Positions 1,877 to 44,435 of a DNA stretch of 64,000 nt are shown piece after piece. A model generated the notes under the pieces. The model did not search any database. It had not been told where the DNA came from and saw nothing but the letters and a program-made list of their open reading frames with translations. The translations under genes and the position numbers were made by a program. The DNA lies in NCBI GenBank assembly GCA_009917445.1, contig QZEE01000010.1:53150-117149 (forward strand), read 5' to 3'. The DNA is from a bacterium D16-76 (GTDB lineage Bacteria > Bacillota > Clostridia > Oscillospirales > Acutalibacteraceae). Numbering within the stretch: the first letter of the stretch is position 1; the number at the start of each line of letters is the position of its first letter.

Positions 1877-2686
1877 TTACAAAAGCCAGCCAACGTCCAG
1901 CTCTAAGGGGGTTAGCTTTACATCGGGCTTTACCCTTTCCCCGTGGAAGTCGCTGCCGCCGGTGGTGCGCAGGTTGTACTTTTTTGCCAGCCCTAAATAA
2001 AACGCCTGCTGGGCCGGGGTGTGCTTGGGGTAGAAGCACTCCAAGGCGTCCAGGCCCCAGGAGGCCAGCTTTTTCACCAGCTCTTCCAGGGCGCTGTCTT
2101 CCAGCCGCAGCTGGTAGGGGTGGGCCAGCGCCGCCTTGCCCCCAGAGGCCCGGATGGCATCCAGGCCGTCCCGGGCGCTGAGCTTGAAAATTTTGACCTG
2201 GTGGTATTCCTCTGTGTCCAAATACCGGTCAAAGGCCTCCCGGTTCGACTGCACATAGCCCCGGCGCACCAAAGCCTGGGCAAAATGGGGCCTGCCGATC
2301 ACGCTGCCGCCTGCCAGCCCCTCCACTTCTTCCAGGGTGATGTCCAGCCCCTTGCGGCGCAAAAAATCTAAAAGCAGGAACTTCTTCTCCTCCCGCCCTT
2401 TCTGGAACCGCCCGCACAGGGCCCGCAGGGGGGCGGCCTCTTCCCCAAACCCATACCCCAGGATGTGGAAATTGCGGTATTCCGCGGCACTCATTTCTAC
2501 GCCCCGCAAGAGGCGCACCCCCAGGCGTTCCCCGGCCTGTGCAGCCTCGGCAAGCCCGTCTATGGTGTCGTGGTCTGTCAGCGCCAAAACCTCGATCCCC
2601 TTTTCCTTTGCCAGCCCCACCAGGGCTGCGGGGGCGTACTGCCCGTCCGAAGCGGCGCTGTGGGTGTGTAAATCTACTATAGCCAT
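1877..2686 (-). CDS. PHP-domain phosphoesterase (RNase AM/TrpH-like)
   Basis: A 269-residue protein with the complete PHP metal-ligand set: DLHTHSAASDG at the N-terminus, TDHD near residue 38, AHPYQL near residue 190 and GGSDFHG near residue 244. The length and motif order fit the YciV/TrpH group, which removes the 3' phosphate of nucleoside 3',5'-bisphosphates and acts as a 5'-3' exoribonuclease on short RNAs. The exact substrate here is inferred from family. It is cytoplasmic and convergent with the preceding gene. A role in recycling 3'-phosphonucleotides left by the neighbouring 3'-phospho-CDP-phosphoramidate pathway is conceivable but unproven. Confidence 0.85.
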   Translation of the reverse strand: MAIVDLHTHSAASDGQYAPAALVGLAKEKGIEVLALTDHDTIDGLAEAAQAGERLGVRLLRGVEMSAAEYRNFHILGYGFGEEAAPLRALCGRFQKGREEKKFLLLDFLRRKGLDITLEEVEGLAGGSVIGRPHFAQALVRRGYVQSNREAFDRYLDTEEYHQVKIFKLSARDGLDAIRASGGKAALAHPYQLRLEDSALEELVKKLASWGLDALECFYPKHTPAQQAFYLGLAKKYNLRTTGGSDFHGERVKPDVKLTPLELDVGWLL

Positions 2687-2945: not shown

Positions 2946-3677
2946 TCACAAATCCTTCATCTGTTCGTAGACATCAATGTCATTCTCAGAATCGCACTCC
3001 AACCAAAGCCAGCTTGTAGGGATGGCTTGGACAGGGTATCCCCGCCCCACCAGCTCTTGCAGCAGGGTGGTCATGTCCAGCTTGCCTACCGGTTTTGCCA
3101 GGGGCTCCTGGACGGTCTTCTCCACCCAGCCCCAGCTTTCCGGGGTAAAGCGCAGCAACCCCATAAACTGGCCCTGGATGTCCTCCCGTGTGCTGGGCTT
3201 CTTCCCAATCTCCACCAGCCGCCCGCCGCTGTCGGTGCGGAAGGTTTCCAAATCCTCCAAAGGGTTTTCCATGCGCGTTTCCCACAGCTCCCAAAAGCCT
3301 GTGTACGATGTAATAGCCAGCGGCGCGTCACAGTCCGCCAGCGCGCGGATAGCCAGGGGGGAAAAGACGATATCCGAATAACAGACGATGCAGGGCTCCT
3401 GTTTCAGCCATTCTTTTGCCATAGTCAGGGAGTAGAACATGTTGGTCTGTTCCCAGACCTCATTGTGGAAATAGGCCACCTCAGGCACCGTAAACATCCC
3501 GTTTTTATAGCCAGTCACAATGCCGACCTCTTTTTTAGCGATCCCCGCCTGCCCCAATGCTTCCAGGCAGCGGTCCAACAGTGTGCGGCCCTTTAGCATA
3601 CACATGCACTTGGGCCGGTCTTTTGTGCGTTCCCCCAGGCGGCTGCCCCGCCCGGCGGCCAAAATAATCACTTTCAC
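2946..3677 (-). CDS. LicC-like nucleotidyltransferase; probable CTP:phosphoglutamine cytidylyltransferase (Cj1416-like)
   Basis: A 243-residue protein with the sugar-nucleotidyltransferase signature ILAAGRGSRLG, followed by KDRPKCMCML as in LicC/phosphocholine cytidylyltransferases. The GTG start at 3677 shares a GTGA overlap with the stop of the upstream gene; a longer frame to 3971 merely overlaps that gene. In C. jejuni the homologue in the same gene set (Cj1416) joins CTP to N-phospho-L-glutamine to form CDP-L-glutamine. Assignment to that reaction instead of phosphocholine activation rests on the complete surrounding gene set, not on specificity residues. It is the last gene of the operon. 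Alternative: an ordinary phosphocholine or sugar cytidylyltransferase. Confidence 0.8.
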   Translation of the reverse strand: MKVIILAAGRGSRLGERTKDRPKCMCMLKGRTLLDRCLEALGQAGIAKKEVGIVTGYKNGMFTVPEVAYFHNEVWEQTNMFYSLTMAKEWLKQEPCIVCYSDIVFSPLAIRALADCDAPLAITSYTGFWELWETRMENPLEDLETFRTDSGGRLVEIGKKPSTREDIQGQFMGLLRFTPESWGWVEKTVQEPLAKPVGKLDMTTLLQELVGRGYPVQAIPTSWLWLECDSENDIDVYEQMKDL

Positions 3678-4258
3678 AGCTTCAACGCCTCCCGTATCCA
3701 TTGGATGTCCCGTTCCCGCAAGGGGCAGTACCGCTCCGGGTGCCACATGATCCCCCGCACCCAGGGGTATTCCTGGTGCGCAACAGACTCTAAAACCCCG
3801 TCCCCGCTCCAGGCTAAAGGGGTAAGCGGCGGGCGGCACTCCAAGGCCCCCCAGCCGTGGAAGCTGTTGACCTTGTCCCCATTGGAGAGCAGGTGTTCCA
3901 CCCGCACATGGCCCTCCACCCGCACCAGCGGCGTACCAAAGGTATGCAAAAGCATCTGCATGCCCCGGCAAACGCCCAGCAGGGGGACGCGGTTTTCCAG
4001 GGCAAATTGGATCAAAACCCCCTCGGCGTCGTCGCGCTCAGGGGCCTCCCCCAAATCGTTGCCGCCTGTAAGGATTATGCCGTCCGGCGGCATTTCATCT
4101 AGCATAGAGCGCACAGTCCCTGAGCGGTTGGGCAAAATCAGCGGCACAAAGCCGCAGGCCTCCGCCAGCACCGCCCACTCCTGGGACAGCGCGTCCCGGC
4201 GCTCGCCGATATTTTCTATAGTTTCTACCCGCTGGGTAAGCGCAACCTTTTTGCTCAT
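3674..4258 (-). CDS. Class I glutamine-amidotransferase-like hydrolase; probable gamma-glutamyl-CDP-amidate hydrolase (Cj1417-like)
   Basis: A 194-residue protein of the gamma-glutamyl-GABA hydrolase/PuuD family. The nucleophile elbow GVCRGMQ is near residue 98 and the catalytic His/Glu are in WHPERYCP near residue 174. It is shorter than PuuD (about 250 residues), like C. jejuni Cj1417, which hydrolyses CDP-L-glutamine to L-glutamate and cytidine diphosphoramidate. The start overlaps the preceding stop by four bases and its own end overlaps the next start, so translation is coupled. The biochemical role is inferred from family plus neighbours. Confidence 0.82.
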   Translation of the reverse strand: MSKKVALTQRVETIENIGERRDALSQEWAVLAEACGFVPLILPNRSGTVRSMLDEMPPDGIILTGGNDLGEAPERDDAEGVLIQFALENRVPLLGVCRGMQMLLHTFGTPLVRVEGHVRVEHLLSNGDKVNSFHGWGALECRPPLTPLAWSGDGVLESVAHQEYPWVRGIMWHPERYCPLRERDIQWIREALKL

Positions 4259-6549
4259 AATACCATCACCGTCCGGTTCCGGCCGTTTATTTCCAGCCGT
4301 TTTGCCGCCGCGTACCGGGCAAACTGCTTTTCCCCAACGCCTATCACAGCCGGCAGCCCGAACTCTGCCGCGCGGATAGCCATATGGGAATTGGCCCCGC
4401 CGTAAGCGGTAATAAACCCGGCGATTTTGTGGGAAAAGATCCAGTCATACCCCGGGTCGGCGCCGCGTATCAGCACAATCTTCCCTTCCAGCGGGCTGTC
4501 TGAGGGAAGCGGGACCGTTTCGGCGCGGCAGCTGTTTTGGGTGATAAAATTAGGGCTGCCGTCCAACAGGAAAAAGCTGTAGATCTGCCGCTCGTCCCAC
4601 AGCAGCGGCGGCAGGGTGATGCCGCCCGCCACCTGTTCCAAGGCCTTGCCGTCCTGGATAGACGCCCGCAGCACCTGCCCCAGGTCGGCAGTGCTGGAAT
4701 ACGCCTCGGTCACCCGCTGGATGGTCACATAGGACATTTCCTCCCGGTTGAGGCCATAGGGCTCACCCAGCTGGGCCAGCAGCTCCAGCGCGTCGGACAG
4801 CGTGTGCGTAAACACAAATTTCCCATATTCCCGGCCCTCAATAGCCTGCTGGATGAAACGGAAAAGGGACAGTACATCCGCTGAAAGCCGGTGTTCCTCC
4901 AGCATGTGCTGAAGCCTCTCCAGCTGTTCCAGCGAAAGTTTAAAGGCCCCTTCCTCCTGATGGCTTGCGCCGCCCTGGGTAAAGTCGAAATAGCGTTCCT
5001 GCCCCTGGTCGTAGCGGGGCGAGCAGATGTCGTAGGTGCCGGGCCGCAAATGGCCGTACCGGCCTAAAAAGTCCGCGGGCGGTATGTCGTGGAAATCCCG
5101 GGCGATATTTTTGCCCACGGTAGATAACCCGCCCATGTACTGGGCCCGTTCCTCTTCTGTCAGGACCCCCGTGGCCACCATAGAGCGCAAAAGCTCTACC
5201 GCAATAAACCCGGCCCGGGCCAGCCCCGCAAAAGGCAGGGTGCCGTAGCGCTTGCAATACTCTAAAAGCCAGTAGACCTTGTCCGCCGTTTCCAGCCGGC
5301 TTTCCATGATTTCCCGGTGCTTCTGCTGCAAAACCCTTATCTTCTCCGCGTCCCTGCGCCACAGCCCGTCTTCACAGATGATGTGGTTAGTCAAGCCCCG
5401 CAAAGCATCTATCAGGCATGCCCGCTCCTCCTCAGTAAACCCCGCCTGGCCCAAGACCTTCACACGTTCCCGCAGGTCAAAGGTATAGCAGGTAAAAGCA
5501 ATCTCAAACTCCACCTTGTCGTGGAACTGCGGGTTTTCCCGCAGGCGGGCCAAATAATATTCCGCCAGCTTTTCCGCCAAAGGCTCCGGCAGGGTCTTGG
5601 GCAAAAAGGAGTTAAAGCTCACCCGGGCGTCGATGTAGGGCAGGCCCTGGAAATCTACCATAAGGGGGAAGGAGCGCAGGTTGCGGTAGCCGTAATTGTC
5701 CCGCTGGTAGGCCCACACGCCGTTGGTGATGATCTCCTTGTACAAGCTCAGCGCCAGGGCCCGGGGCCGTATGCCGATCATCTCCGCCGGGTTCCAGTCC
5801 GGCATGACGCCATAGATGGTAGTCCCGCCGCACAAATCCGGGTGGGGCTGCATGGCGCTGCGCAGCTTTTTCTGAATCTGCCCCAGCTCCCGGGCCTGCT
5901 GCCCGCCGTCTTTCAGGGGGCAGCGCAGGACAAGGGGCCGGGCTTGCAGCAGGTATAATTCCCCTTGGGAAATAGCAAACTCAATATCCAGCAAGGGGGT
6001 GCCAAAAACCCCCTCCAGCTCCTGGCACAAGGCAATGACGCGGTCTAAAGGCTCTGGGGCCGGGTAGGGGGACTTCTTGAAATGGTAAAAAGTCTCCAAA
6101 TGCTCCCCGGTGCCGTCGGTCACCGAGCTGGTAGAGCCGGTAGAAGCGTCGTAATTTAAAATGTAATAATGGCCGCCGGTGTTGGGGTCCGCGGTAAAGG
6201 CCACGCCGCACAGCTCGACCTGGGCCAAAAAGGGCTGGATGAAAACCTGGTTTTCCGGGTCCGGGCCCATGGCTTCCACAACCCGCCTTACCGCCCGCCG
6301 CACTTCCTCTTCCCCGCACACATCGGGTATGGAGAGGAACTTGCCCGCGTTAGAGCTTTCCGCGGTGTCCTCGTTTTTCGCGCTGCTGCGCACAATAAGC
6401 CGCCGCCCCAGCAGCCCGCCCTCTTCTAGAAGCGGGATGCACTGCCCGGCGTCCTTTGCCGTAAAGCAGACCTGCGGCAGCACCTTCGCGCTGGCCAGCC
6501 GCCCGGCCAGCCCGCGCAGGGTGTCCGCTTTGCTTTTGAATGTTTGCAT
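4255..6549 (-). CDS. PEP-synthase-like phosphotransferase; probable L-glutamine kinase (Cj1418-like)
   Basis: A 764-residue protein from ATG 6549 (the frame extends 12 codons further but into the upstream gene). The N-terminal third is a PPDK-type ATP-grasp domain (LIVRSSAKNEDTAESS motif). The middle is specific to this subfamily and starts around MPDWNPAEMIGIRPRALA. The C-terminus carries the swivelling phosphohistidine domain, GGANSHMAIRAAEFG, with the phosphate-carrying His near residue 722. No PEP/pyruvate barrel is present, so it is not a PEP synthase. The C. jejuni homologue Cj1418 phosphorylates the side-chain amide nitrogen of L-glutamine using ATP, giving AMP and phosphate. This would be the committed step and the source of the phosphorus-nitrogen bond. 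Confidence 0.85.
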   Translation of the reverse strand: MQTFKSKADTLRGLAGRLASAKVLPQVCFTAKDAGQCIPLLEEGGLLGRRLIVRSSAKNEDTAESSNAGKFLSIPDVCGEEEVRRAVRRVVEAMGPDPENQVFIQPFLAQVELCGVAFTADPNTGGHYYILNYDASTGSTSSVTDGTGEHLETFYHFKKSPYPAPEPLDRVIALCQELEGVFGTPLLDIEFAISQGELYLLQARPLVLRCPLKDGGQQARELGQIQKKLRSAMQPHPDLCGGTTIYGVMPDWNPAEMIGIRPRALALSLYKEIITNGVWAYQRDNYGYRNLRSFPLMVDFQGLPYIDARVSFNSFLPKTLPEPLAEKLAEYYLARLRENPQFHDKVEFEIAFTCYTFDLRERVKVLGQAGFTEEERACLIDALRGLTNHIICEDGLWRRDAEKIRVLQQKHREIMESRLETADKVYWLLEYCKRYGTLPFAGLARAGFIAVELLRSMVATGVLTEEERAQYMGGLSTVGKNIARDFHDIPPADFLGRYGHLRPGTYDICSPRYDQGQERYFDFTQGGASHQEEGAFKLSLEQLERLQHMLEEHRLSADVLSLFRFIQQAIEGREYGKFVFTHTLSDALELLAQLGEPYGLNREEMSYVTIQRVTEAYSSTADLGQVLRASIQDGKALEQVAGGITLPPLLWDERQIYSFFLLDGSPNFITQNSCRAETVPLPSDSPLEGKIVLIRGADPGYDWIFSHKIAGFITAYGGANSHMAIRAAEFGLPAVIGVGEKQFARYAAAKRLEINGRNRTVMVL

Positions 6550-6553
6550 AGGG

Positions 6554-7327
6554 TCACCGCTTTGTAGAACGCACCGTGAACGCACGGGACAAGTAGGGGA
6601 CTACGACATGCTCCATGCCCTGGATTTTCCCCTCAATCATGTTCAAGACCTGCTCGAATAATTCGTCCCCGGCCTGCGCATGGATGTCGTTAACCGACCG
6701 CCAGGCGCCCATGTACCGCTCAGGGGTCATGACAGCCTCGTGGGGGCCCTCTACCAAGAACAGGTCCTCAAAAAAGCGTGTAGACAGCAGCTTGCTTTCC
6801 ATGTCCTGCATATTGGCCCGGGAGCCCGAGGACACCCGCTTCAAATGCGGCACCATTTCTTGGATCGAGTGCTCGATATCCATGTGGAACGGGCTGCTTT
6901 CCAGGTTCCGGGGGTTCCAAATCGCGGTAAAAAAGCCGCCCGGGCGTAGCACGCGGTGGAATTCTTCCAACGCCACCGGCGCGTCTGCCCAATGGAAGGA
7001 AGAGCCCATCAGCACCCAGTCCACGCAGTTGTCCGGCAGGTTTGTCACTTCCGCCAGCCCCTTCGACCACACAAATGTGTCCTTGCCCTCAAAAAGCTTT
7101 ATGCCTTCCGCACGCATAGCGTCATTGGGCTCCACAGCATACCCCCGCAGCCCAAGGCCCTCTAAATCCTGGGTGAGCTTGCCGGTACCAGCACCCACGT
7201 CCGCTACCTTCTCAATGGGGCCGTTCATGGATTCAATATACCCCTTCAGTACACGGAGTACTGTCTCCGAATAGCCGACCCGGTTCACATATTCTTTTGC
7301 GAGCTTTGTAAAATCGCCTAATTGCAT
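6554..7327 (-). CDS. Class I SAM-dependent methyltransferase (Cj1419/Cj1420-like)
   Basis: A 257-residue Rossmann methyltransferase. Motif I reads VADVGAGTGKLT (about residues 41-52), the acidic end of strand 2 is in YAVEPND, and the LRPGGFFTAIWNP post-III segment follows. Its place between the CysC-like kinase and the glutamine-kinase-like gene, with 1-4 base gaps, ties it to the phosphoramidate pathway. The C. jejuni set has two such methyltransferases (Cj1419, Cj1420), proposed to make the O-methyl group; only one is present here. The acceptor is therefore predicted to be a phosphoramidate oxygen, but the sequence alone shows only a small-molecule methyltransferase. Confidence 0.82.
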   Translation of the reverse strand: MQLGDFTKLAKEYVNRVGYSETVLRVLKGYIESMNGPIEKVADVGAGTGKLTQDLEGLGLRGYAVEPNDAMRAEGIKLFEGKDTFVWSKGLAEVTNLPDNCVDWVLMGSSFHWADAPVALEEFHRVLRPGGFFTAIWNPRNLESSPFHMDIEHSIQEMVPHLKRVSSGSRANMQDMESKLLSTRFFEDLFLVEGPHEAVMTPERYMGAWRSVNDIHAQAGDELFEQVLNMIEGKIQGMEHVVVPYLSRAFTVRSTKR

Positions 7328-7328
7328 A

Positions 7329-7829
7329 TTAATGCTTCCTCACTTTCCATAAAATATCCACTTGTTCTTCCGGTGTTTTGCTGCCGTCGTTCTCCAAAAC
7401 CAAATCCGGGCATTTGGGTTCTTCCACTTGGAAATGCACCCCCGCCACATCCGCTTCCCCCGTGCTGTACAGGCCCTTCTGATCCCGGCGGCGCAGGGTG
7501 CCCATAGACACCTTCACATACACCTCAAAATAGCCGGGAATATTCTCCCGGTTCCATTGCCGCACACGGTCAAACATAGAAATGGTGCAGCAAACCACCG
7601 TAAAGCCCTGCTTTGCCAATAATGCGCATAGCCGGGCGTTGCGCATAGCGCTTTTGCGGCGGTCCGATTCGCTGAACCCCAAATCGTCGCCAAAAACCTG
7701 CCGCAGCTCGTCGCCGTCTAAAAAGACAGCTGCCTCCCCAGCCTCCCGCAATTTTTCATACCACAGCCGCCCTATGGTGGTTTTGCCCGCCCCAGACAAG
7801 CCGGTAAGCCAATATACTTTTCCCTCCAT
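7329..7829 (-). CDS. CysC/APS-kinase-like kinase; probable cytidine diphosphoramidate kinase (Cj1415-like)
   Basis: A 166-residue P-loop kinase with GLSGAGKTT (about residues 10-18), LDGDELR and the RDQKGLYSTG segment characteristic of adenylylsulfate kinases. ATG 7829 was chosen over TTG 7835 because a GAGGG site sits seven bases upstream of it. No sulfate-activation partners (cysD, cysN, PAPS reductase) occur in the window. In C. jejuni, Cj1415 looks like an APS kinase but phosphorylates the 3'-OH of cytidine diphosphoramidate, yielding a PAPS-like donor. That role fits the neighbours better than sulfate activation. True APS kinase activity feeding the adjacent sulfotransferase-like protein is the main alternative. 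Confidence 0.82.
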   Translation of the reverse strand: MEGKVYWLTGLSGAGKTTIGRLWYEKLREAGEAAVFLDGDELRQVFGDDLGFSESDRRKSAMRNARLCALLAKQGFTVVCCTISMFDRVRQWNRENIPGYFEVYVKVSMGTLRRRDQKGLYSTGEADVAGVHFQVEEPKCPDLVLENDGSKTPEEQVDILWKVRKH

Positions 7830-7839
7830 AGCCAAGCCC

Positions 7840-9849
7840 TCAGTGGTATAGCGGCTGCTCTAAAAGCGCCGGGTCCAATTTCAGCAGCGGCATCATGTGC
7901 AGCTCCTGGGCGTGGTTGTTGATGAAGTGCAGGCCCCGCAGAAGGGTCTTGCCGGTTTTCAGGCGGTTTTCACGGTTGAGCTCCATAAGCCTTTCCGAAA
8001 GGATTTTCTGGACATCCTCCTCAGGGATATCCGAAAGGTCGATCCCCTCCGGCACTTCCAGCTTAGCCTTGACCTTTTTGGCGCTGGCCTCAATATAGTG
8101 GTCGATTGTGTCAAAATGGTTGCACAGCTCCTCTACCCGCGCTTCGTCAACAGGCTGGCCGTCATAATACTGAAAGTCATAGCCATAGGCCTCATAGGTA
8201 TCCCGCATAAAATATTCCATAAAGTAGCGCTCGCTGTCGCCCAAGAAATCCGGGTAAGTCTCATAAACAGCCCGGGGGTCAAAGCCTCTGGCGTCGCCCT
8301 TTAGGGACTCAGGGTCACGCTCGCCAAACATAGAGCAATAGGTCAGGCTTTCGGTGTAGGGCAGGTCTAAAAATTCCGCCAAAGCGGTAAAAGTAGCCTT
8401 GGGGTTCAGCTTCCCATCCTCAAACCGGGCCAGGACGCTGTCCTGGAACAGCCGGTCCTGCCAGTCGATCAGGTAGCTGCGGTTGAGCACACGTGAATTT
8501 ACATCATCCCCGATGAGCTTCTGTTCCTCTTCCTCTGGGTCCTCCCAGCTTGCCAGGGCGTTTTTCCACATATACCGCACACAGGCGGCGCTGCTGGTAG
8601 TAGGGCGGCGGAAAGGCGCTACGGATTTGATATATTTGAAATTCTTGAAAATGGGGGAATTCCGGATCTTCTCATACTCCCGGGAGTAGAGAATGGTCAG
8701 ATTCTGCTTGGGGTCCACCAGGATCTGGTAACCGATATATCCGAAGTGGGGGGAGAGCAGCAGCGCGGGCACGATCCGGGACGCGGGGTCTGTCGCCATG
8801 GTGCAGCGCTCGTCCCCCAGATACCCAGCTACCAGAATGTCTTTATCGGTCTGGTCTTTTAACAGATACAGTTCCCTCTGGATCCGGTTCACGGTTTCGG
8901 TAGATTTGGCAATCTGTGCCGTGCTATGGACCTTTTTCACGTTCTCTTTCCAAGTGTTAAGCCCTTCTTCCACCTTATCAAACATCTGGGCGGGAGCCGA
9001 AAGGATATTGGGATGCCCATCCAAAATCTCCGCAAAGAAGTTGATACAGTTGTGGGACTGAAGCTGGGACAGCCAAATCATACGCGTAACCTCCCGGATG
9101 CCCACAGGCTTTACCGGGTACTGGCTGTAGTCCATGCCAAAACGCTCTTTAAAATCAATGGGGTACTGGGCAACCTCATCGCCGATCAAAAAGACGATCT
9201 TCTCCTCTTCCAGCAGGGGCCGCACATTTAAGCACTGAAGGTAAGAGCAAAAGGCCCCCCAGTCCGTATAGTGGAGGTATAGGTGGTTTTCGCGGCCCAC
9301 ATAGTCGCTGCGGCGCACGTTGTCCCGCAGGTATTCCAGCTCGTACTGGGAGTACACGTCTGCCGCCAGGATGGGCTTTTCCAAATCTTTAAAAAAGTTG
9401 CGGCTGATGACAGGCCGCTTGATATCCGTAAACTCCCCGAATTCCCGCCGGCTGGGGAAGAAGGGGATGTAGCTGTCGTCACTGTAAGGGTAAAACTGGA
9501 TGGGCAGCTCCTCAAAGGGCAAAAAGTCTTTGCGGAACAAATAGGGGTAGCGTTTCAGCAGCTTTACGTTGCGTTCGTAACGGTTTTTCAGCTGTTTGAC
9601 GTTGGGCTCGTAAAAAGCCCCGGTCAGCAGGGCCAGGGTCTCTTCTTGGTAGAGGCCGCGGCGGTACAGGTTTAAAAAGCAGGTATACGGAACCTGGTAG
9701 CTGCCACCGGCCTGCAGGATGTAGACGGCAGCTTCCAGTTCCTCCTGGGGGGCCAGCCCCCCTTCGTGGACAGCCAGGGTGTAAGCCTGCAGGGCATCAT
9801 CCGCCTGGCCCAGCTCCGCCATGCGGCGGGCGATCTCCATTGCTTGCAT
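7840..9849 (-). CDS. Large sulfotransferase-like protein; candidate (methyl)phosphoramidate transferase acting on flagellin or its glycan
   Basis: A 669-residue protein with no recognised signal peptide or membrane segment. The C-terminal part has the sulfotransferase landmark LARFEDGKLNPKATF followed by LAEFLDLPYTES (about residues 490-520). The central NFFAEILDGHPNILSAP segment resembles the 5'-phosphosulfate-binding helix of sulfotransferases, though the usual GSGTT loop is not obvious. It sits between flagellin and the enzymes predicted to make 3'-phospho-CDP-phosphoramidate, a PAPS look-alike, so a sulfotransferase fold that uses this donor makes chemical sense. Cj1421/Cj1422 occupy the same place in C. 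jejuni. AGGAA lies 9 bases before ATG 9849. A true sulfotransferase or another flagellin glycan transferase is possible. Confidence 0.72.
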   Translation of the reverse strand: MQAMEIARRMAELGQADDALQAYTLAVHEGGLAPQEELEAAVYILQAGGSYQVPYTCFLNLYRRGLYQEETLALLTGAFYEPNVKQLKNRYERNVKLLKRYPYLFRKDFLPFEELPIQFYPYSDDSYIPFFPSRREFGEFTDIKRPVISRNFFKDLEKPILAADVYSQYELEYLRDNVRRSDYVGRENHLYLHYTDWGAFCSYLQCLNVRPLLEEEKIVFLIGDEVAQYPIDFKERFGMDYSQYPVKPVGIREVTRMIWLSQLQSHNCINFFAEILDGHPNILSAPAQMFDKVEEGLNTWKENVKKVHSTAQIAKSTETVNRIQRELYLLKDQTDKDILVAGYLGDERCTMATDPASRIVPALLLSPHFGYIGYQILVDPKQNLTILYSREYEKIRNSPIFKNFKYIKSVAPFRRPTTSSAACVRYMWKNALASWEDPEEEEQKLIGDDVNSRVLNRSYLIDWQDRLFQDSVLARFEDGKLNPKATFTALAEFLDLPYTESLTYCSMFGERDPESLKGDARGFDPRAVYETYPDFLGDSERYFMEYFMRDTYEAYGYDFQYYDGQPVDEARVEELCNHFDTIDHYIEASAKKVKAKLEVPEGIDLSDIPEEDVQKILSERLMELNRENRLKTGKTLLRGLHFINNHAQELHMMPLLKLDPALLEQPLYH

Positions 9850-9967: not shown

Positions 9968-12142
9968 TTAGCCCAACAGCTGCAGCACGCCCTGGGGCAC
10001 AGCGTTGGCCTGGGCCAGCATAGCCTGTGCGGACTGCACCAGGATGTTGTTCTTGGTGTAAGCCATCATCTCTTCGGCCACGTCGGTGTCGCGGATGGTG
10101 GACTCGGCGTCCTGGATGTTCTCGGCCATGACGCTCAGGTTGTTGGCGGTGTGCTCGAGACGGTTCTGGGTCGCGCCCAAATCGCCGCGGACGCCGGACA
10201 CCTGGTTGATAGCGTCACGGATGGTCTTGATAGCAGCGGAAGCCCCTTCGGGGTTGCTGATATTCAGGTCCGCGATGCCCAGGGCCCTGGTGTGCATGTC
10301 GCCGATCTTCACGCTCAGCTGGTTGTAGCTGTCGCTGGTATCGCCGATTTGCAGCTGCAGGCCTTCGCCGGTGATAACCGGGGCCTTAGAGTTCTCAACC
10401 GCCGCCTTGTCGGCCGTGGTGCCGGTCTTGGAGCGGATGGTGAGAATCTTCTTGTCCGCGTCGTCGCCGGTGCCGTTCTTCACATCCACCTCATAGTCGC
10501 TGCCCAGGGCTGTCTGAAGGTTAGCCAGGGCGTCGCCGTCCATGCTTACCTCAATGTTCTTGCCGTCGGCGGAAGGAGCGCCGGCCGTGCCCTTAACAAA
10601 GGTGTAAACCTTGCCGTCAATGTTCAGCTTGTTGCCGGCGGCAAGCTTGGTGGGGTCAACCGTAATGGCCACGCCAGCGCCCTTGTCGGCGGTAGCGGGG
10701 GCGGTCACCTTAATCTTGCTGGTCAGGTCCGCCTCGGTCTTCAGCTCCTTGCCCGCAGTAGTGGTCTTGCTGGTCTGCTCGAAGTGGATGGTGGTCTTGC
10801 CGCCCGCGCTGGAGGAGCCAATCTTCCACTTGCGGCCGTCCGCGGCGGCGAACTCCGCCTGATTACTTAGCTTGTCGGCGAGGATATGGACAAGCTCCGC
10901 GTCCGTCTTGCCGGCAGCCTTCTCGGCGGAGAGGTCGATGTTAAAGTCGCCTCCGGTGGGGGCAGTTGTCCCGGTCTGGACGGTGAACTTTTTGCCGTCA
11001 ATTTCAATGACAGTGCCGTCCTGAACCATAGCCTCCGTCAGCTCCAGGTCAATGCCGGCCATGCTGTCGGCCTTAAAGGCCTGGGCCTGGGTAACCTTGG
11101 TGGTCTCGTGGACCACGTCGCCCGTATAGGACTTGGCACCGATGACATCAGTCAGCTTCACGTTCATGCCCAGATCCTTGTTGATCTGCTCGGCTGCAGT
11201 AGCGTCAAACTCGTTGGTGGTGGCGCCGGGAGTGTCGGAGACCTCCGTGTAGTTAGCGGTACCGGCGCCCACGCCGGCCAGGGTCAGCTTGACGTTATCG
11301 CCGTCCACCGTAACCTCGTACACGTTGCTGCCGATCTTGATAGAGTCATTGGCGGCAGTGCCGGTTGCCGATGCGCCGGTGGTCTTGTCAACACCGTTGC
11401 TGCTTCCTACCATAGCGTCCTTCAAAGCAGTGGCAATATCGGCAGCGGAATAGCTGGTCTTACTAGTCAGGCTCGCAGTATAGGTGGTGCCGCCGATATC
11501 GAATTGCATGCTGACAGTATCAGAGGTGTTGGCAGCCTCCGCTGAAAGGGCGCTGATGTCAATAATAGCGCTGGCGTTTGTCTGGCTGTTGCCTTTTACT
11601 TCCAGGTGGGCGGTCCCGCCTTTCACAGTGCCCAGCAGGCCTTTCAGATCCACGGTGCCGTTGTGGCCTACCTGGCCGGCCACGTTCTCGAAGTTGGTGA
11701 ACGCGGTGGTGTTGATGCCAGCCTTGCCGTCCAGCAGCTTAATGCCGTTGAAGTTGGCGCTGTCGGCGATACGGTCGATTTCAGAACGGAGCTGGTTGAC
11801 TTCTTTCTGCAGGTTCAGGCGGTCCACTTCGTTGTCATAGGTGCCGTTAGCGGACTGGGTAGCCAGGTAGTCCATGCGGTTGAGCATGTCCTGAATCTCC
11901 TGCATAGCGCCCTCAGCGGTCTTCACCAGGGAGATGCCGTCCTTGACGTTCTTCTGGGCAGCGTTGAGGCCGGTGATCTGGGCACGCATTTTCTCCGAAA
12001 TGGCCAGGCCGGCGGCGTCGTCGCCAGCGCGGTTGATCTTGTAGCCGGAGCTGAGCTTTTCCAGGTTCTTAGACAGGGCGGACGTATTGGTGTTGTAGTT
12101 CCGGTAGGCGTTCATCGCCATAATGTTGTGTTGGATACGCAT
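9968..12142 (-). CDS. fliC: Flagellin
   Basis: A 724-residue flagellin. The conserved N-terminal D0/D1 helices (residues 1 to about 165; MRIQHNIMAMNAYRN, LSSGYKINRAGDDAAGLAIS) and C-terminal D1/D0 helices (about the last 125 residues, ending in NAVPQGVLQLLG) enclose a hypervariable surface domain of about 430 residues rich in Thr, Ser, Ala and Gly. That makes it much longer than the compact Bacillus Hag (about 300 residues). Ser/Thr-rich surface domains are the usual targets of flagellin O-glycosylation, in line with the modification genes downstream. The AAAGGAGA site 7 bases before the ATG overlaps a likely CsrA site. No fliS, fliW or other flagellar structural gene is in the window. Confidence 0.97.
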   Translation of the reverse strand: MRIQHNIMAMNAYRNYNTNTSALSKNLEKLSSGYKINRAGDDAAGLAISEKMRAQITGLNAAQKNVKDGISLVKTAEGAMQEIQDMLNRMDYLATQSANGTYDNEVDRLNLQKEVNQLRSEIDRIADSANFNGIKLLDGKAGINTTAFTNFENVAGQVGHNGTVDLKGLLGTVKGGTAHLEVKGNSQTNASAIIDISALSAEAANTSDTVSMQFDIGGTTYTASLTSKTSYSAADIATALKDAMVGSSNGVDKTTGASATGTAANDSIKIGSNVYEVTVDGDNVKLTLAGVGAGTANYTEVSDTPGATTNEFDATAAEQINKDLGMNVKLTDVIGAKSYTGDVVHETTKVTQAQAFKADSMAGIDLELTEAMVQDGTVIEIDGKKFTVQTGTTAPTGGDFNIDLSAEKAAGKTDAELVHILADKLSNQAEFAAADGRKWKIGSSSAGGKTTIHFEQTSKTTTAGKELKTEADLTSKIKVTAPATADKGAGVAITVDPTKLAAGNKLNIDGKVYTFVKGTAGAPSADGKNIEVSMDGDALANLQTALGSDYEVDVKNGTGDDADKKILTIRSKTGTTADKAAVENSKAPVITGEGLQLQIGDTSDSYNQLSVKIGDMHTRALGIADLNISNPEGASAAIKTIRDAINQVSGVRGDLGATQNRLEHTANNLSVMAENIQDAESTIRDTDVAEEMMAYTKNNILVQSAQAMLAQANAVPQGVLQLLG

Positions 12143-26586: not shown

Positions 26587-27855
26587 ATGGGTTTAAAAGA
26601 AAAATGGCAGAACCGCACCCGCCACAGCCTGCTGGAAAACACGGTGATGCTGTATATTCTGCAGTTTTCCACCATGGCCCTGGGCTTTTTTACCCAGGGG
26701 TTCCAGGTGCGGGTGCTGGGCATGGAGAAGGTGGGGGCCTTGGGCGCGGCGGCCTATGCCACCAATTTTTTCCAGATGCTGATTGATTTTGGGTTTATCC
26801 TGTCGGCTACGGCTAAAATCTCCCAGCGGCGGGAGGACAAGGGGGAGCTGGGGCATATCCTCTCCTGCGTCATAGCGGCCAAGGGGCTGTTTATGGCGGT
26901 GTCCTTTGGGGTGCTGCTGGGGTTTATTGCCCCGGCCCTTACGGGGGAGGGGGAACTGCAGGTATATGTGTATTACCTGCTGTCGGTGTGCCTGGGGTCC
27001 CTTTTGCCGGACTTTATGTACCGGGGGCTGGAACAGATGGGGCCTATTACCGCCCGGGCGGTGAGCATAAAGACCTTTGCCGCGGTGATGATCTTCCTGT
27101 TTCTGCGGCAGCCGGGGGACTATTACATGGTGCCCCTGTTTACGGCCATAGGCAACGGGGGGGCCCTGGTGTTTGTGTACTGGCACCTGTTTAAAAAGGT
27201 GGGGGTAAGGTTCTGCCCCATAAGGCCCTGGGACGTGTGGGAGGAAATGAAGGAATCTTCCCAGTTTTTCCTGTCAAAAGTGGCGGGGTCCATTAACGTG
27301 AGCCTGAGCGGTGTGATTTTGAAGGCTGTGGCCGGGGAGACGGTAACCGGCCTTTACACCAACGCCGACCGGGTCATCAGCGTGGCAAGGGCGGGCATGT
27401 CGCCCATAGCGGACAGCCTGTACCCCCATATTATGAAGAACCGGAATTTCGCCATTGTGAAAAAGGCGCTGGTGCTGGTGTACCCGGTGATTTTGCTGGG
27501 GTGCGCCCTGGTGTTTATTTTCGCTGAGCCCCTGCTGGTTTTGTGGCTGGGGCCTGAGGGGAAGGATGTGGCCGCGCCCCTGCGGCTGATGATCCCGGCG
27601 GCGGTGTTTACCTTCCCCAGCTATGTGCTGGGGCACCCTACCCTGGGGGCCATGGGGCTGATTAAATATGCCAACATATCGGTGGTTTTCGGCACGGCGG
27701 TGTACCTGCTGGGGCTGGGGGCGGCTTACTTTACCGTGGGCGTGAGCCTTACCTCGGCCAGCGTGCTGGCAAGCCTTACCGAGTTTTCCATCCTGGTGTT
27801 CCGGATAGCGGTCATTATCAGGCACCGGCAGATTTTGAAGGATGGGGCTGTGTGA
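26587..27855 (+). CDS. Wzx-type polysaccharide/lipid-linked oligosaccharide flippase
   Basis: A 422-residue integral membrane protein with about 12 hydrophobic helices in the MATE/MOP-type pattern. The N-terminal NTVMLYILQFSTMALGF and VLGMEKVGALGAAAYATNFF segments match polysaccharide biosynthesis flippases. It would flip undecaprenyl-linked repeat units outward. It starts 11 bases after the glycosyltransferase stop, with GAGGGGGGAG as the ribosome site. The context (glycosyltransferase, priming transferase, epimerase, LTA-synthase-like enzyme) supports a wall-polymer or capsule role. Confidence 0.9.
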   Translation: MGLKEKWQNRTRHSLLENTVMLYILQFSTMALGFFTQGFQVRVLGMEKVGALGAAAYATNFFQMLIDFGFILSATAKISQRREDKGELGHILSCVIAAKGLFMAVSFGVLLGFIAPALTGEGELQVYVYYLLSVCLGSLLPDFMYRGLEQMGPITARAVSIKTFAAVMIFLFLRQPGDYYMVPLFTAIGNGGALVFVYWHLFKKVGVRFCPIRPWDVWEEMKESSQFFLSKVAGSINVSLSGVILKAVAGETVTGLYTNADRVISVARAGMSPIADSLYPHIMKNRNFAIVKKALVLVYPVILLGCALVFIFAEPLLVLWLGPEGKDVAAPLRLMIPAAVFTFPSYVLGHPTLGAMGLIKYANISVVFGTAVYLLGLGAAYFTVGVSLTSASVLASLTEFSILVFRIAVIIRHRQILKDGAV

Positions 27856-27922
27856 TATGTGGTACCGGCCTGTGGGGGAAGCACTACAGGTAGAGTTTTC
27901 CAGAAGTAAAAGGTGGAAGTTT

Positions 27923-27951
27923 TTGCTTTTTGCGAGCCTATCTGCTATAAT
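27923..27951 (+). promoter_or_regulatory. Internal promoter before the priming sugar transferase
   Basis: TTGCTT (27923-27928), 17-base spacer, TATAAT (27946-27951) with an extended TGC directly before the -10. The 146-base gap to the previous gene supports a separate transcription start. Confidence 0.7.
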
Positions 27952-28001
27952 GGGGGCAAAAGTGCGGGGCGTAAAGCCTGGCCCGGTTGGGGGATTTTGC
28001 C

Positions 28002-29384
28002 ATGCATATGATTAAAAAACTGAAAAGGACCGTTGTCTTTATTATGAAGCTGGCGCTGTTTGCGTCGCTGTTTGGGATATTCTTCGGGATTTTTGGGATC
28101 AACAACCCCTGGCTGTTTGACCTGTCCCGGACCACCGGCGTTACCACGGTCACCTTTATTGTCATGGGCATTGCCTTGATGTCGGTTTATGGGGGGTACT
28201 CCATCGGCACCCAGAAGTCTAAGCCCATTGTGCACTCTATGGCCCTGGCCACGGTGATTACGGACCTGGTGACCCATTTGCAGCTGTCCATTATGAACAC
28301 CAGCCAGTTTAACAACGACCACTTTGTTTATGAGACGCCCCATCTGCTTTTGCTGGTCATGTTTTTGCAGATCGTGGTGATCATCCTTTTCACCTATTTC
28401 GGCAACTTCATCTATTTTTCTTTAGAGCCCCCGGAGAAGTGCTGCGTGGTGTCCTCCTCCCGGGAGAGCCTGGGGAGCATCATCCCTAAGGTGGAGCGGT
28501 TTAAGAAGCAGTACCAGATCCGGGAGATCGTGCGGTATGACTCCCCCAAGGTGCTGGATGTCATAAGCCGGAACGACACGGTGTTTTTGTACGACGTGCC
28601 TACCCGGGAACGCACCAGCCTGATCGACTTTTGCTACCAGACCCAGAAGAACATCTATTATAATTTTGAGATGATCGACGTGGTGAGCCAGGGGGCCCGG
28701 TATGTGAACCTGGACGACAAATCTTTGGTGATGCACATTGCCAAGGACCTGACCATGGAACAGCGTATTGTGAAAAGGCTGATGGATATTTCCATCTCCC
28801 TGCTGGCGCTGGTGGTTAGCAGCCCCATTATGCTGGCCTGTGCCGTGGCTATTAAGGCTGAGGACGGGGGCAAGGTCTTTTATAAGCAGAAGCGGCTGAC
28901 CAAGTATGGACGGGTGTTCCAGGTGTATAAGTTCCGCACCATGAAAGAGGAAAACTCGGTGCACAAGTCGGTGACCGAAAACGACGACCGCATTACCAAG
29001 GTAGGGGGCATCCTGCGGAAGTTCCGCGTAGACGAGCTGCCCCAGATGCTGAACATCTTAAAGGGCGACATGACTGTGGTGGGGCCCCGGCCGGAAATGC
29101 TGGAAAACGTGGAGAAGTACACCGAGGAGCTGCCGGAGTTTTCTTACCGCCTGCGCATGAAGGCGGGGTTAACGGGGCTTGCGCAGATATCGGGCAAGTA
29201 CAATACCTCGCCTAAGGACAAGCTGGTGATGGACCTGATGTATATTGAGAATTACAGCATCTGGCAGGATTTGAAGCTGATTTTCCAGACCATTACCGTG
29301 TTTTTGAAGGCTTCGGAGAGCACGGAGGCCTTTGGCAAGGAAGAGCTTTACGACTTTGACAGCGAAGAGGACGGCAAAAAGTAA
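28002..29384 (+). CDS. Polyprenyl glycosylphosphotransferase (priming sugar transferase)
   Basis: A 460-residue protein of the WbaP/WcaJ type. Four N-terminal membrane helices (residues about 10-135) precede a cytoplasmic segment. The C-terminal bacterial sugar transferase domain (from about residue 260) contains KRLMDISISLLALVVSSP, YKFRTMKEEN, RKFRVDELPQMLNILKGDM and VGPRPEM. It moves a sugar-1-phosphate onto undecaprenyl phosphate, the first step of surface polysaccharide synthesis. Start ATG 28002 has GGGGG 8 bases upstream; the TTG at 27987 is less likely. Confidence 0.93.
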   Translation: MHMIKKLKRTVVFIMKLALFASLFGIFFGIFGINNPWLFDLSRTTGVTTVTFIVMGIALMSVYGGYSIGTQKSKPIVHSMALATVITDLVTHLQLSIMNTSQFNNDHFVYETPHLLLLVMFLQIVVIILFTYFGNFIYFSLEPPEKCCVVSSSRESLGSIIPKVERFKKQYQIREIVRYDSPKVLDVISRNDTVFLYDVPTRERTSLIDFCYQTQKNIYYNFEMIDVVSQGARYVNLDDKSLVMHIAKDLTMEQRIVKRLMDISISLLALVVSSPIMLACAVAIKAEDGGKVFYKQKRLTKYGRVFQVYKFRTMKEENSVHKSVTENDDRITKVGGILRKFRVDELPQMLNILKGDMTVVGPRPEMLENVEKYTEELPEFSYRLRMKAGLTGLAQISGKYNTSPKDKLVMDLMYIENYSIWQDLKLIFQTITVFLKASESTEAFGKEELYDFDSEEDGKK

Positions 29385-29396
29385 GGAGGCGCGCCC

Positions 29397-30110
29397 ATGG
29401 AAGAATATTTGCGCCGGGTGTACCCCGGCTCTGGGGAGGAATTTTTAAGGAAGGCCGAGGCCGCCCTGCTGGAAGGCAGGCGCATGTTCGTGGTGACGGC
29501 TAACCCGGAAATCTTGATGGCGGCGGGCCGCGGCGGGGAGGCCCGCTCCCTGCTTTTGTCAGAGGAGGCGGAAATCGTCCCGGACGGCATCAGCGTGGTG
29601 AAGGCCATGGGCATGCTGGGCCTGCCGGTTACCGAGCGCATAACCGGTGTGGACTTGGCGGACAAGCTCCTGCACACCGCCGGGCGCGCGGGGAAAAGCG
29701 TGTACCTGCTGGGCGCGAAGGAAGAGGTTGTCTCGGCCCTGGCAAGGAAACTGAAGGCCCACTACCCTTCTATGACGCTGCGCTACCACAACGGCTACGA
29801 CGGCCACAAGGACGCCATTATGAAGGAGGTTTCCACCCTGGCCCCGGATCTGCTTTTGGTAGGTTTGGGCGTCCCTGCCCAGGAGCTCTTGCTGTACCGC
29901 CACCTGCAGGAGTTTAGGAAGGGCGTGCTTATGGGCGTGGGCGGGTCTTTTGACGTGCTCAGCGGCATGAAGCGGCGGGCCCCGGTTGCCTTTCAGAAGA
30001 CCAACACCGAGTGGCTGTACCGCATTGCCCGGGAGCCTTCGCGCCTTAAGCGCTTTTGGCGCAGCAACGTGAAGTTTCTGGGCGAGGTGCGCAAGGCCGC
30101 CAGGAAATGA
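29397..30110 (+). CDS. WecG/TagA/CpsF family glycosyltransferase
   Basis: A 237-residue GT26 enzyme with TANPEILMAA near residue 35, the IVPDGISVVKAM segment containing the catalytic Asp near residue 63, and PDLLLVGLGVPAQE near residue 150. TagA adds N-acetylmannosamine to GlcNAc-PP-undecaprenol, which needs UDP-ManNAc. The next gene encodes the UDP-GlcNAc 2-epimerase that makes that donor. The chemistry is therefore coherent with a teichoic-acid-like linkage unit. A terminator follows. Confidence 0.9.
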   Translation: MEEYLRRVYPGSGEEFLRKAEAALLEGRRMFVVTANPEILMAAGRGGEARSLLLSEEAEIVPDGISVVKAMGMLGLPVTERITGVDLADKLLHTAGRAGKSVYLLGAKEEVVSALARKLKAHYPSMTLRYHNGYDGHKDAIMKEVSTLAPDLLLVGLGVPAQELLLYRHLQEFRKGVLMGVGGSFDVLSGMKRRAPVAFQKTNTEWLYRIAREPSRLKRFWRSNVKFLGEVRKAARK

Positions 30111-30115
30111 GCCTC

Positions 30116-30138
30116 GGCCCCTCTTCGGGGCCTTTTTT
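30116..30138 (+). terminator. Intrinsic terminator
   Basis: GGCCCC (30116-30121) pairs with GGGGCC (30127-30132), followed by six T, directly after the TagA-like gene. Confidence 0.8.
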
Positions 30139-30148
30139 CGTTGGCCTG

Positions 30149-30218
30149 CGGCAAGGCCGTGGGGCGCTGCCCCACACCCTGCCAGGGGGCCATGCCCCCT
30201 GGACCCCACGCTTCGCTT
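30149..30218. repeat. Dispersed double-hairpin repeat, copy 2
   Basis: Two adjacent hairpins (GTGGGGC...GCCCCAC and CCAGGGGGC...GCCCCCTGG) are followed by CCCCACGCTTCGCTTC, the same layout and tail as at 20809-20876. Confidence 0.6.
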
Positions 30219-30346
30219 CTCGCGGGCGGGGTGGCTTCTTTTGGAAGGGTTGGGGGCCGCGGCGGGAGGTTGTAAGGAAAATGTAAAAGAATTGTAGACA
30301 TGAAATTGAGGACACACGAATATACTGGTAAGAAAGGTGGATGGGT

Positions 30347-31462: not shown

Positions 31463-31492
31463 AGATTGAAGATATAAGAGGGAAAACGGCCT

Positions 31493-35724: not shown

Positions 35725-37377
<1,653 letters not shown>

Positions 37378-38961: not shown

Positions 38962-38973
38962 ATCCTTTCCTCC

Positions 38974-44430: not shown

Positions 44431-44435
44431 CGACT

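What the first reader, a model, noticed from the sequence alone, without database searches (positions are those of the whole stretch)
2946..9849. Complete phosphoramidate (MeOPN-type) biosynthesis cassette directly downstream of flagellin
Seen: six contiguous minus-strand genes whose families and lengths are sulfotransferase-like (669 aa), CysC-like (166), SAM methyltransferase (257), PEP-synthase-like with phosphohistidine domain (764), class I amidotransferase-like hydrolase (194) and LicC-like (243). Known: C. jejuni Cj1415-Cj1418 make 3'-phospho-CDP-phosphoramidate from glutamine, CTP and ATP, with Cj1419/1420 and Cj1421/1422 for methylation and transfer to capsule. Gene order matches except that the kinase has moved. 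Inference: this Gram-positive anaerobe decorates flagellin or its glycan with (O-methyl) phosphoramidate. I know of no described flagellin phosphoramidate.
Basis: partly seen in the sequence, partly recalled or inferred. Interest (0 to 1): 0.95.

Follow-up and report, generated by a model that had tools for sequence, protein, structure and literature searches.

The report
Flagellin cassette predicted to add phosphoramidate
Directly behind a flagellin gene of a gut-type bacterium lies a set of genes predicted to build an unusual phosphorus-nitrogen group, known from the Campylobacter capsule, and likely to attach it to the flagellum with an enzyme of predicted sulfotransferase shape; in 23 of 26 loci examined this enzyme's gene lies behind a flagellin gene, often next to genes apparently for other chemistries such as activated sulfate.

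Summary
The six minus-strand genes at 2946-9849 are real and intact, 118 bp behind flagellin. Four fit the 3'-phospho-CDP-phosphoramidate pathway known from the C. jejuni capsule: glutamine-kinase-type, gamma-glutamyl-CDP-amidate-hydrolase-type, LicC-like cytidylyltransferase and CysC-like kinase; a methyltransferase accompanies them. In 80 glutamine-kinase loci of many phyla, hydrolase and cytidylyltransferase are each present in 76. The 669-aa protein (T669) matches no Pfam or NCBIfam family, but its predicted structure has a sulfotransferase domain. T669 homologues lie behind flagellin in 23 of 26 loci (the rest hold 2, 2 and 230 upstream bases) and are followed by a CysC-like kinase in 24 of 26. 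The further genes change: glutamine kinase, ATP sulfurylase, or ribitol/erythritol- or glycerol-phosphate-type cytidylyltransferases. A donor-loop residue tracks this (I/V/T in 6 of 6 phosphoramidate loci, G in 17 of 17 others). A PHP phosphoesterase gene (1877-2686) probably belongs too. Independently, the glutamine-kinase gene lies between flgL and fliC in 6 of 6 Pseudomonas-type loci. Best reading: a modular flagellin-modification system, here loaded with (methyl) phosphoramidate. Chemistry, acceptor and direct similarity to C. jejuni proteins are untested.

The parts
9968..12142 (-). flagellin (724 aa), presumed carrier of the modification
   Evidence: Flagellin_N 2.2e-42 and Flagellin_C 1.1e-26; one of 5 Flagellin_N genes in this genome
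9895..9923 (-). intrinsic-terminator-like hairpin between fliC and the cassette
   Evidence: 13-pair stem, 10 G-C pairs, followed by a T run
7840..9849 (-). T669: predicted flagellin (glycan or protein) transferase, predicted sulfotransferase fold from about residue 250 on
7329..7829 (-). CysC-like kinase, predicted cytidine-diphosphoramidate 3'-kinase
   Evidence: NF004041 180.4 bits (cut-off 127), apsK 117.4 (cut-off 138.7); groups with kinases of other glutamine-kinase loci of its family
6554..7327 (-). SAM methyltransferase, predicted O-methylation of the phosphoramidate or its carrier
   Evidence: Methyltransf_11 8.5e-15; a homologue of 60 bits or more in 63 of 80 glutamine-kinase loci, in a broad superfamily
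4255..6549 (-). glutamine-kinase-type enzyme (PPDK_N + phosphohistidine domain)
   Evidence: NF004508 907 bits, cut-off 501; His722 and ATP-site residues invariant in 26 aligned sequences
3674..4258 (-). gamma-glutamyl-CDP-amidate-hydrolase-type enzyme (class I amidotransferase fold, Cys97/His173/Glu175)
   Evidence: best NCBIfam NF045546, 94.7 bits, below its cut-off of 250; motifs located
2946..3677 (-). LicC-like CTP nucleotidyltransferase, predicted N-phosphoglutamine cytidylyltransferase
   Evidence: NTP_transf_3 1.3e-15; homologue near the kinase in 76 of 80 loci
1877..2686 (-). PHP phosphoesterase, predicted recycler of the 3',5'-bisphosphonucleotide left after transfer
   Evidence: best NCBIfam NF041577 3',5'-nucleoside bisphosphate phosphatase, 179 bits, cut-off 400, with RNase RNM close behind at 173; downstream on the same strand in 12 of 26 T669 loci; own promoter-like site 2774-2746

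Best explanation
This is a gene cassette behind flagellin that is predicted to make 3'-phospho-CDP-phosphoramidate and likely moves its phosphoramidate group onto that flagellin, or onto its glycan, with an enzyme of predicted sulfotransferase fold. Steps, all inferred from families and known C. jejuni chemistry: glutamine + ATP gives N-phosphoglutamine; + CTP gives CDP-glutamine; hydrolysis gives glutamate and CDP-phosphoramidate; the CysC-like kinase adds a 3'-phosphate, so that the donor resembles PAPS; T669 transfers phosphoramidate and releases 3'-phospho-CMP; the PHP enzyme dephosphorylates that; the methyltransferase O-methylates. Shown here: the genes, their families, the fold prediction, and the comparative pattern in which T669 stays behind flagellin while the donor genes after the kinase change.
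For: Gene set and families. Core in 80 loci across many phyla: hydrolase 76 of 80, cytidylyltransferase 76 of 80, CysC-like kinase 68 of 80, all three with the glutamine kinase in 65 of 80. Hydrolases of four other loci, three of them from other lineages, also match NF045546 best, all below cut-off. T669 has a predicted sulfotransferase fold; human tyrosylprotein sulfotransferases come first. T669 lies behind flagellin in 23 of 26 loci; the other three hold 2, 2 and 230 bases upstream; a CysC-like kinase follows in 24 of 26. Two further T669 paralogues of the same genome sit behind two other flagellins. Swapped donor genes at the same place: ATP sulfurylase over a curated cut-off (L106; also L112 by Pfam), ribitol/erythritol-phosphate-type and glycerol-phosphate-type cytidylyltransferases, these below their cut-offs. 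Kinase classes follow the donor: 5 changes against 16.4 in shuffles. Loop residue 269 is I/V/T in 6 of 6 phosphoramidate loci and G in 17 of 17 others, although the six T669s are not one clade (AU p 3.8e-7); one further non-phosphoramidate locus (L137) has G as predicted. In Pseudomonas-type loci the glutamine-kinase gene lies between flgL and fliC, 6 of 6. Sulfotransfer_3 matches near the glutamine kinase also in Paenibacillus (over the cut-off) and, below it, in Anaerotruncus and L013.
Against: No biochemistry. Hydrolase and PHP fall below their curated cut-offs, and the PHP protein scores almost as well as RNase RNM. NF004508 is named only 'hypothetical protein'; that it is the Cj1418 family is recalled. 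C. jejuni Cj1415-Cj1422 sequences were not obtained. A terminator-like hairpin lies between fliC and T669. T669 lacks the canonical sulfotransferase donor-loop motif (HNCIN in place of the recalled [KR]SGT[TS]). Four of the six Pseudomonas-type loci have only a distant CysC-like kinase (85-96 bits) on the other strand, and these group next to the ATP-sulfurylase-linked kinases. Residue 269 is one of five positions that separate the sets, and the sets differ by only two forced changes on the tree. A wall-polymer-type gene set lies about 14 kb upstream of fliC and could be an alternative acceptor system. Most of the other glutamine-kinase loci show no flagellin in the stretch held.
Confidence: 0.7

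Rival explanations
1. The cassette makes phosphoramidate for a wall-associated or capsular polymer, and its place behind flagellin is incidental.
For: Known phosphoramidate in C. jejuni is on capsule (PMC9561416 passages). Wall-polymer-type genes (Polysacc_synt, Bac_transf, UDP-GlcNAc 2-epimerase, sulfatase-family) lie at 26.6-33.6 kb of the window. Most of the other 80 glutamine-kinase loci show no flagellin in the stretch held.
Against: T669 homologues lie behind flagellin in 23 of 26 loci, the other three at contig edges, including two paralogues in the same genome with other donor genes. The wall-polymer genes are on the other strand and far away.
Confidence: 0.15
2. The operon is a sulfation system: the CysC-like enzyme is a true APS kinase and T669 transfers sulfate from PAPS.
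For: Predicted sulfotransferase fold; APS_kinase Pfam family; sister T669 cassettes carry ATP sulfurylase. The apsK cut-off does not discriminate: the ATP-sulfurylase-linked kinase of L106 misses it too (123.6 of 138.7).
Against: No ATP sulfurylase in this cassette. The window kinase fits NF004041 far better than apsK (180.4 against 117.4 bits), whereas the L106 kinase fits APS kinase models better than NF004041 (125.2 and 123.6 against 101.5); the two ATP-sulfurylase-linked kinases form their own branch (100, long) away from the window's. Three contiguous enzymes for CDP-phosphoramidate would be left unexplained; loop residue 269 differs from that of the sulfate-type T669.
Confidence: 0.05
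3. The glutamine-kinase route makes a different P-N or CDP-amide compound here, for example a CDP-glutamine-derived group retained as phosphoglutamine, transferred to flagellin.
For: The hydrolase is below the curated equivalog cut-off (94.7 of 250 bits), so its specificity could differ; sister cassettes transfer other CDP-linked groups by inference.
Against: Cys, His and Glu of the amidotransferase fold are in place; NF045546 is its best NCBIfam match here and for four other loci.
Confidence: 0.08

Closest known systems
O-methyl phosphoramidate pathway of the Campylobacter jejuni capsule (Cj1415-Cj1422)
   Same: Same four enzyme types plus methyltransferase in one contiguous block; the known pathway starts with N-phosphorylation of glutamine and passes through 3'-phospho-5'-cytidine diphosphoramidate (PMC6429109 passages). 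Gene order as recalled matches apart from the kinase.
   Different: Linked to flagellin instead of capsule; the transferase is a flagellin-associated T669 of predicted sulfotransferase fold; a PHP phosphoesterase may be added; host is of the Oscillospiraceae type. Similarity of T669 to Cj1421/Cj1422 was not tested.
Type A flagellin glycan of Clostridioides difficile and b-type glycan of Pseudomonas aeruginosa PAO1
   Same: Phosphorus-linked group on flagellin made by a dedicated gene cluster (abstract of PMC11833859; abstract start of PMC8861647 in the listing).
   Different: Those carry a sugar with a phosphodiester-linked methylated threonine; no glutamine kinase, CysC-like kinase or sulfotransferase-fold protein is named in what I read of them. 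No glycosyltransferase family matched in the window cassette.
Sulfotransferases, tyrosylprotein type first (human TPST1/2)
   Different: About 11% identity; by Z tied with bacterial curacin-type and olefin-synthase sulfotransferase domains (12.7, 12.6), so a protein acceptor does not follow; canonical donor-loop motif absent; extra N-terminal part; predicted donor is a cytidine and not an adenosine nucleotide.

Membership tests
CDP-phosphoramidate (MeOPN) biosynthesis pathway | PEP-synthase-like glutamine kinase with phosphohistidine domain | tested here: met
   PPDK_N and PEP-utilizers; NF004508 907 bits over cut-off 501; His722 invariant in 26 sequences. That NF004508 holds Cj1418 is recalled.
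CDP-phosphoramidate (MeOPN) biosynthesis pathway | gamma-glutamyl-CDP-amidate hydrolase | tested here: inconclusive
   NF045546 is the best family but 94.7 bits lies below its equivalog cut-off of 250
CDP-phosphoramidate (MeOPN) biosynthesis pathway | CTP nucleotidyltransferase and CysC-like nucleotide 3'-kinase in the same gene block | tested here: met
   NTP_transf_3 and NF004041 over cut-off; both near the glutamine kinase across loci, 76 and 68 of 80
CDP-phosphoramidate (MeOPN) biosynthesis pathway | direct sequence similarity to Cj1415-Cj1418 | not tested
   no C. jejuni sequence was among the loci fetched or the proteins listed with names
CDP-phosphoramidate (MeOPN) biosynthesis pathway | enzyme activities and phosphoramidate product | not testable with these tools
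   needs biochemistry, 31P NMR or mass spectrometry
PAPS-dependent sulfotransferases | sulfotransferase fold | tested here: met
PAPS-dependent sulfotransferases | canonical 5'-phosphosulfate loop [KR]SGT[TS] (motif recalled) | tested here: not met
   aligned loop reads HNCIN in the window and HNG(G/I/V/T)x in the homologues
Adenylyl-sulfate kinase (CysC) | curated apsK model TIGR00455 cut-off | tested here: not met
   117.4 bits against a cut-off of 138.7; NF004041 fits better, 180.4 against 127. Weak test: the ATP-sulfurylase-linked kinase of L106 misses the apsK cut-off too (123.6).
Type A / b-type phosphodiester flagellin glycan | glycosyltransferase in the cassette beside flagellin | tested here: not met
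   none of the six cassette proteins matched a glycosyltransferase family in Pfam; T669 matched none at all
3',5'-nucleoside bisphosphate phosphatase (PHP) | curated model NF041577 cut-off | tested here: inconclusive
   best match of the 269-aa protein but 179 bits against a cut-off of 400, RNase RNM at 173

The most novel reading that the evidence does not exclude
T669 heads a modular flagellin-decoration system built on one rule: any small group activated as a nucleotide is given a 3'-phosphate by a CysC-like kinase and is then moved to flagellin by a sulfotransferase-fold enzyme, so that sulfate, phosphoramidate and phospho-polyols (ribitol/erythritol- or glycerol-phosphate type) are interchangeable plug-in chemistries behind different flagellin genes, even within one genome, with possible direct attachment to the protein as in tyrosine sulfation.
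Probability: 0.5. Interest if true: 0.88.

Novelty: new variant of a known kind. Interest (0 to 1): 0.82.

Why it matters
Phosphoramidate is a rare biological group, and the work read here places it on Campylobacter capsule; one review calls the glutamine kinase C. jejuni-specific (PMC9561416 passage), which contradicts at the level of gene family. If right, phosphoramidate is also a flagellin modification in gut Bacillota and, by the same gene logic, in Pseudomonas. It would give a function to a large unnamed protein family (1753 of 7997 scored candidates passed E 0.001), propose that a subfamily annotated as adenylyl-sulfate kinase consists partly of CDP-linked 3'-kinases, and make testable the idea that 3'-phosphonucleotide donors beyond PAPS are a general currency for surface modification. 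Flagellin is an immune target in the gut, so its chemistry bears on host recognition and on phages that bind flagella.

Tried and rejected
PDB sequence searches: T669 found nothing up to E 1; the hydrolase found general class I amidotransferases and PuuD-type hydrolases. NF004508 at E 1e-50 was met only in the window's own genome: 1 of 300 family genomes and 1 of 398 phylum genomes; relatives came from genome contigs. T669 was found in 6 of 300 family genomes, 9 of 29 genus genomes, 3 of 5 genomes of a second genus and 1 of 391 class genomes, the own one. The class search, meant as an independent test of the loop-residue prediction noted, therefore gave no new locus; a search of 16 genomes holding glutamine-kinase loci gave one, which agreed.

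Rows left out of counts: L111 (T669 cut short) and L112 (fragment without the loop) are in the 26 loci but not in the 23 rows; L111 has G at 269. The distant T669-like proteins of two glutamine-kinase loci, L004 and L011 (about 120-150 bits), are in neither set; their aligned loops differ altogether and have no G at that column. In 120 listed homologues of unknown neighbourhood the loop was GGD in 90, I or V type in 26 and not matched in 4. In one search, 50 of the 80 loci were searched for flagellin. In one search the glutamine-kinase set was 69 rows (68 of 80 loci and the window), two of all rows being poorly filled.

Maf-type flagellin glycosyltransferase (PF01973) was not found in the own genome, which does not exclude other glycosyltransferases. 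Plasmids and phages: 21 plasmid records (15 listed, 27-50% identity) and 1 unannotated phage record (34%), not followed. The scan found 14 terminator-like sites against 13.3 by chance, so only the strongest hairpin is used, and 8 promoter-like sites against 4.0.

Papers: 'phosphoramidate' with 'flagellin' gave 66 papers, 20 listed; 'glutamine kinase' + 'phosphoramidate' + 'flagell' gave 3, of which PMC6429109's flagell passages are irrelevant; 'MeOPN' + 'transferase' + 'sulfotransferase' gave 0; 'flagellin' + 'sulfotransferase' + 'glycosylation island' gave 0; 'flagellin' + 'sulfotransferase' + 'sulfation' gave 34, 12 listed, with archaeal work on Halobacterium glycoproteins and archaellins but no title or abstract start about sulfated bacterial flagellin. 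PMC2674064 (clostridial flagellar glycosylation island, passages) has the word only in its references; PMC11419355 (passages) has it for C. jejuni and in references; a find in PMC13317340 had none.
Full report
Observation. The six genes at 2946-9849 are present as described, all on the minus strand and nearly abutting, 118 bases behind a 724-aa flagellin gene. The window lies in an assembly of 3.78 Mb; the named loci nearest to its glutamine-kinase gene are Oscillospiraceae such as Oscillibacter and Flavonifractor. Pfam and NCBIfam give APS kinase, methyltransferase, PEP-synthase-type kinase with phosphohistidine domain, class I amidotransferase-type hydrolase and MobA/LicC-type nucleotidyltransferase; the 669-aa protein (T669) has no family. 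The amidotransferase-type protein matches the curated gamma-glutamyl-CDP-amidate hydrolase model best, though below its cut-off (94.7 of 250 bits), and the 764-aa protein matches NF004508 well above its cut-off (907 against 501).

Pathway. In these 80, the hydrolase is found in 76, the cytidylyltransferase in 76, the CysC-like kinase in 68 and a methyltransferase in 63, at 60 bits or more; several of those lacking a partner are short or cut contigs. They include Bacillota, Pseudomonadota, Acidobacteriota, Verrucomicrobia and Treponema. Phosphohistidine and ATP-site residues of the kinase are invariant in 26 aligned sequences, and the hydrolase has its Cys, His and Glu. In the literature, the C. 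jejuni capsule pathway starts with N-phosphorylation of glutamine and passes through 3'-phospho-5'-cytidine diphosphoramidate (PMC6429109, passages). The correspondence of individual genes to Cj1415-Cj1418 is recalled, not computed: no C. jejuni sequence was among the fetched loci.

Comparative test. T669 loci were collected from the own genome, its genus and a second genus, and from the glutamine-kinase loci. Among 26 loci examined together, flagellin lies upstream on the same strand within 550 bases in 23; the three others hold only 2, 2 and 230 bases upstream. A CysC-like kinase follows on the same strand in 24 of 26 (not in L111, where T669 is cut short, nor in L127; in L126 one gene intervenes). 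The further genes differ: glutamine-kinase set (window, L005, L006, L008, L009, L010; 6 of 26); ATP sulfurylase (L106, L112; 2, L106 over a curated cut-off); IspD-like cytidylyltransferases (L100, L101, L104, L105, L107, L109, L110, L122-L125; 11, in L100 best matched as ribitol-phosphate-type and in L101 as methylerythritol-phosphate-type, both below cut-off); a glycerol-phosphate-type cytidylyltransferase domain (L126; 1, below cut-off); or nothing assigned (L108, L111, L121, L127, L128, L137; 6). Two of these are paralogous cassettes behind other flagellins of the same genome. The ATP-sulfurylase cases are informative because they give the group a recognisable donor, PAPS, and so argue that T669 enzymes use 3'-phosphorylated nucleotides in general.

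Trees. The kinase tree of 86 rows needs 5 changes for the five donor labels against a shuffled mean of 16.4 (quick method, several long branches). The window's kinase sits with those of seven other glutamine-kinase loci of its kind, including L006 (95). The two ATP-sulfurylase-linked kinases form their own long branch (100), placed next to the kinases of L035 and four Pseudomonas-type loci, so the glutamine-kinase-linked kinases are not one group. Family ranking agrees in part: NF004041 is the best model for the window's kinase and for those of L045, L034, L100, L101 and L121, while the L106 kinase fits APS kinase models best; no kinase among these, L106 included, reaches the apsK cut-off. In the T669 tree of 23 rows, the six glutamine-kinase-linked T669s are not one clade (AU p 3.8e-7): L006 falls among sulfate-, cytidylyltransferase- and unassigned-type T669s, so donor module and T669 appear to have exchanged partners. 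At residue 269, in the loop aligned with the donor-binding loop of sulfotransferases, all six are I, V or T while all 17 others are G. Five of the 669 positions (10, 269, 287, 345, 385) separate the two sets completely, against a mean of 0.13 (maximum 3) for 300 random splits; random splits ignore relatedness, so this overstates the strength. I noted the prediction before looking for further loci; one new locus was found, with no glutamine kinase in the 9.3 kb held downstream, and it has G.

Independent flagellar link. In six Pseudomonas-type loci (L045, L054, L065-L068) flgL lies just before the glutamine-kinase gene, and the flagellin hit on the same contig lies about 10-14 kb from it on the other side, 6 of 6; FlgL was confirmed by curated models in the three tested. 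In four of them (L054, L065, L066, L068) the only CysC-like kinase in the stretch is distant and on the other strand, so their set may be incomplete. Chitinibacter (L044) has flagellin about 10 kb downstream in the held stretch, and Chitiniphilus (L053) probably likewise, the contig assignment resting on scaffold numbering. One Lachnospiraceae locus (L030) has flagellin about 2.8 kb upstream. Most other loci of the 80 show no flagellin in the stretch held, so phosphoramidate is not always flagellar.

Recycling gene. The PHP gene at 1877-2686 matches the 3',5'-nucleoside bisphosphate phosphatase model best (179 bits, cut-off 400), with RNase RNM close behind (173), and has solved PHP relatives. 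Homologues lie within about 6 kb downstream of T669 on its strand in 12 of the 26 T669 loci, of glutamine-kinase, sulfate, cytidylyltransferase and unassigned types, and in 15 of 101 loci overall. Removal of the 3',5'-bisphosphonucleotide left after transfer is the natural role, by inference. It has its own promoter-like site.

Limits. No activity is shown. The acceptor is open: the TPST-like fold and the lack of a recognised glycosyltransferase family in the cassette hint at direct protein modification, while the sister cassettes with sugar genes leave a glycan acceptor possible. The terminator-like hairpin between fliC and T669 means that the modification genes may be expressed by read-through or from another promoter.

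Noticed in passing
window 35725-48793: Dense block of glutamine and CTP metabolism genes (CTP synthase, asparagine synthase, amidotransferases, type III glutamine synthetase, glutamate synthase, a further glutamine synthetase) in the same window as a cassette that would consume glutamine and CTP; possibly coincidence.
   Followed up: partly
window 26587-33580: Plus-strand polysaccharide gene set (flippase, bacterial sugar transferase, UDP-GlcNAc 2-epimerase, sulfatase-family enzyme), possibly a wall polymer; alternative acceptor system for phosphoramidate.
   Followed up: partly
L100, L101, L125 upstream of flagellin: An ORF that by eye looks like a serine recombinase lies upstream of these flagellin-T669 cassettes, and several such contigs end inside or beside the cassette, which may mean exchange or switching between flagellin cassettes.
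   Followed up: no
L104 and L105 (same genome): Two flagellin-T669-kinase contigs break at the same point inside an IspD-like gene, with 66-100% ungapped identity per 100 bases over the first 1.2 kb, as if two flagellin modules share or recombine with one donor module.
   Followed up: partly
L121, L128, L137: CysC-like kinase in a longer reading frame (about 380 to 480 aa); in L121 the second half weakly matches a methyltransferase model, so a kinase-methyltransferase fusion is likely there.
   Followed up: partly
L034 2799-5567: Paenibacillus kobensis: AMP-binding enzyme fused to a Sulfotransfer_3 domain directly before the glutamine kinase, a candidate phosphoramidate transferase.
   Followed up: no
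L126: Flagellin-T669 locus with a glycerol-3-phosphate cytidylyltransferase-like domain fused to an oxidoreductase-like domain, and an FkbM-type methyltransferase between T669 and the kinase.
   Followed up: partly
MT837632.1 829-2994: Unannotated 9.5 kb 'Bacteriophage sp.' record from human faeces encodes a distant glutamine-kinase-like protein (34% identity).
   Followed up: no
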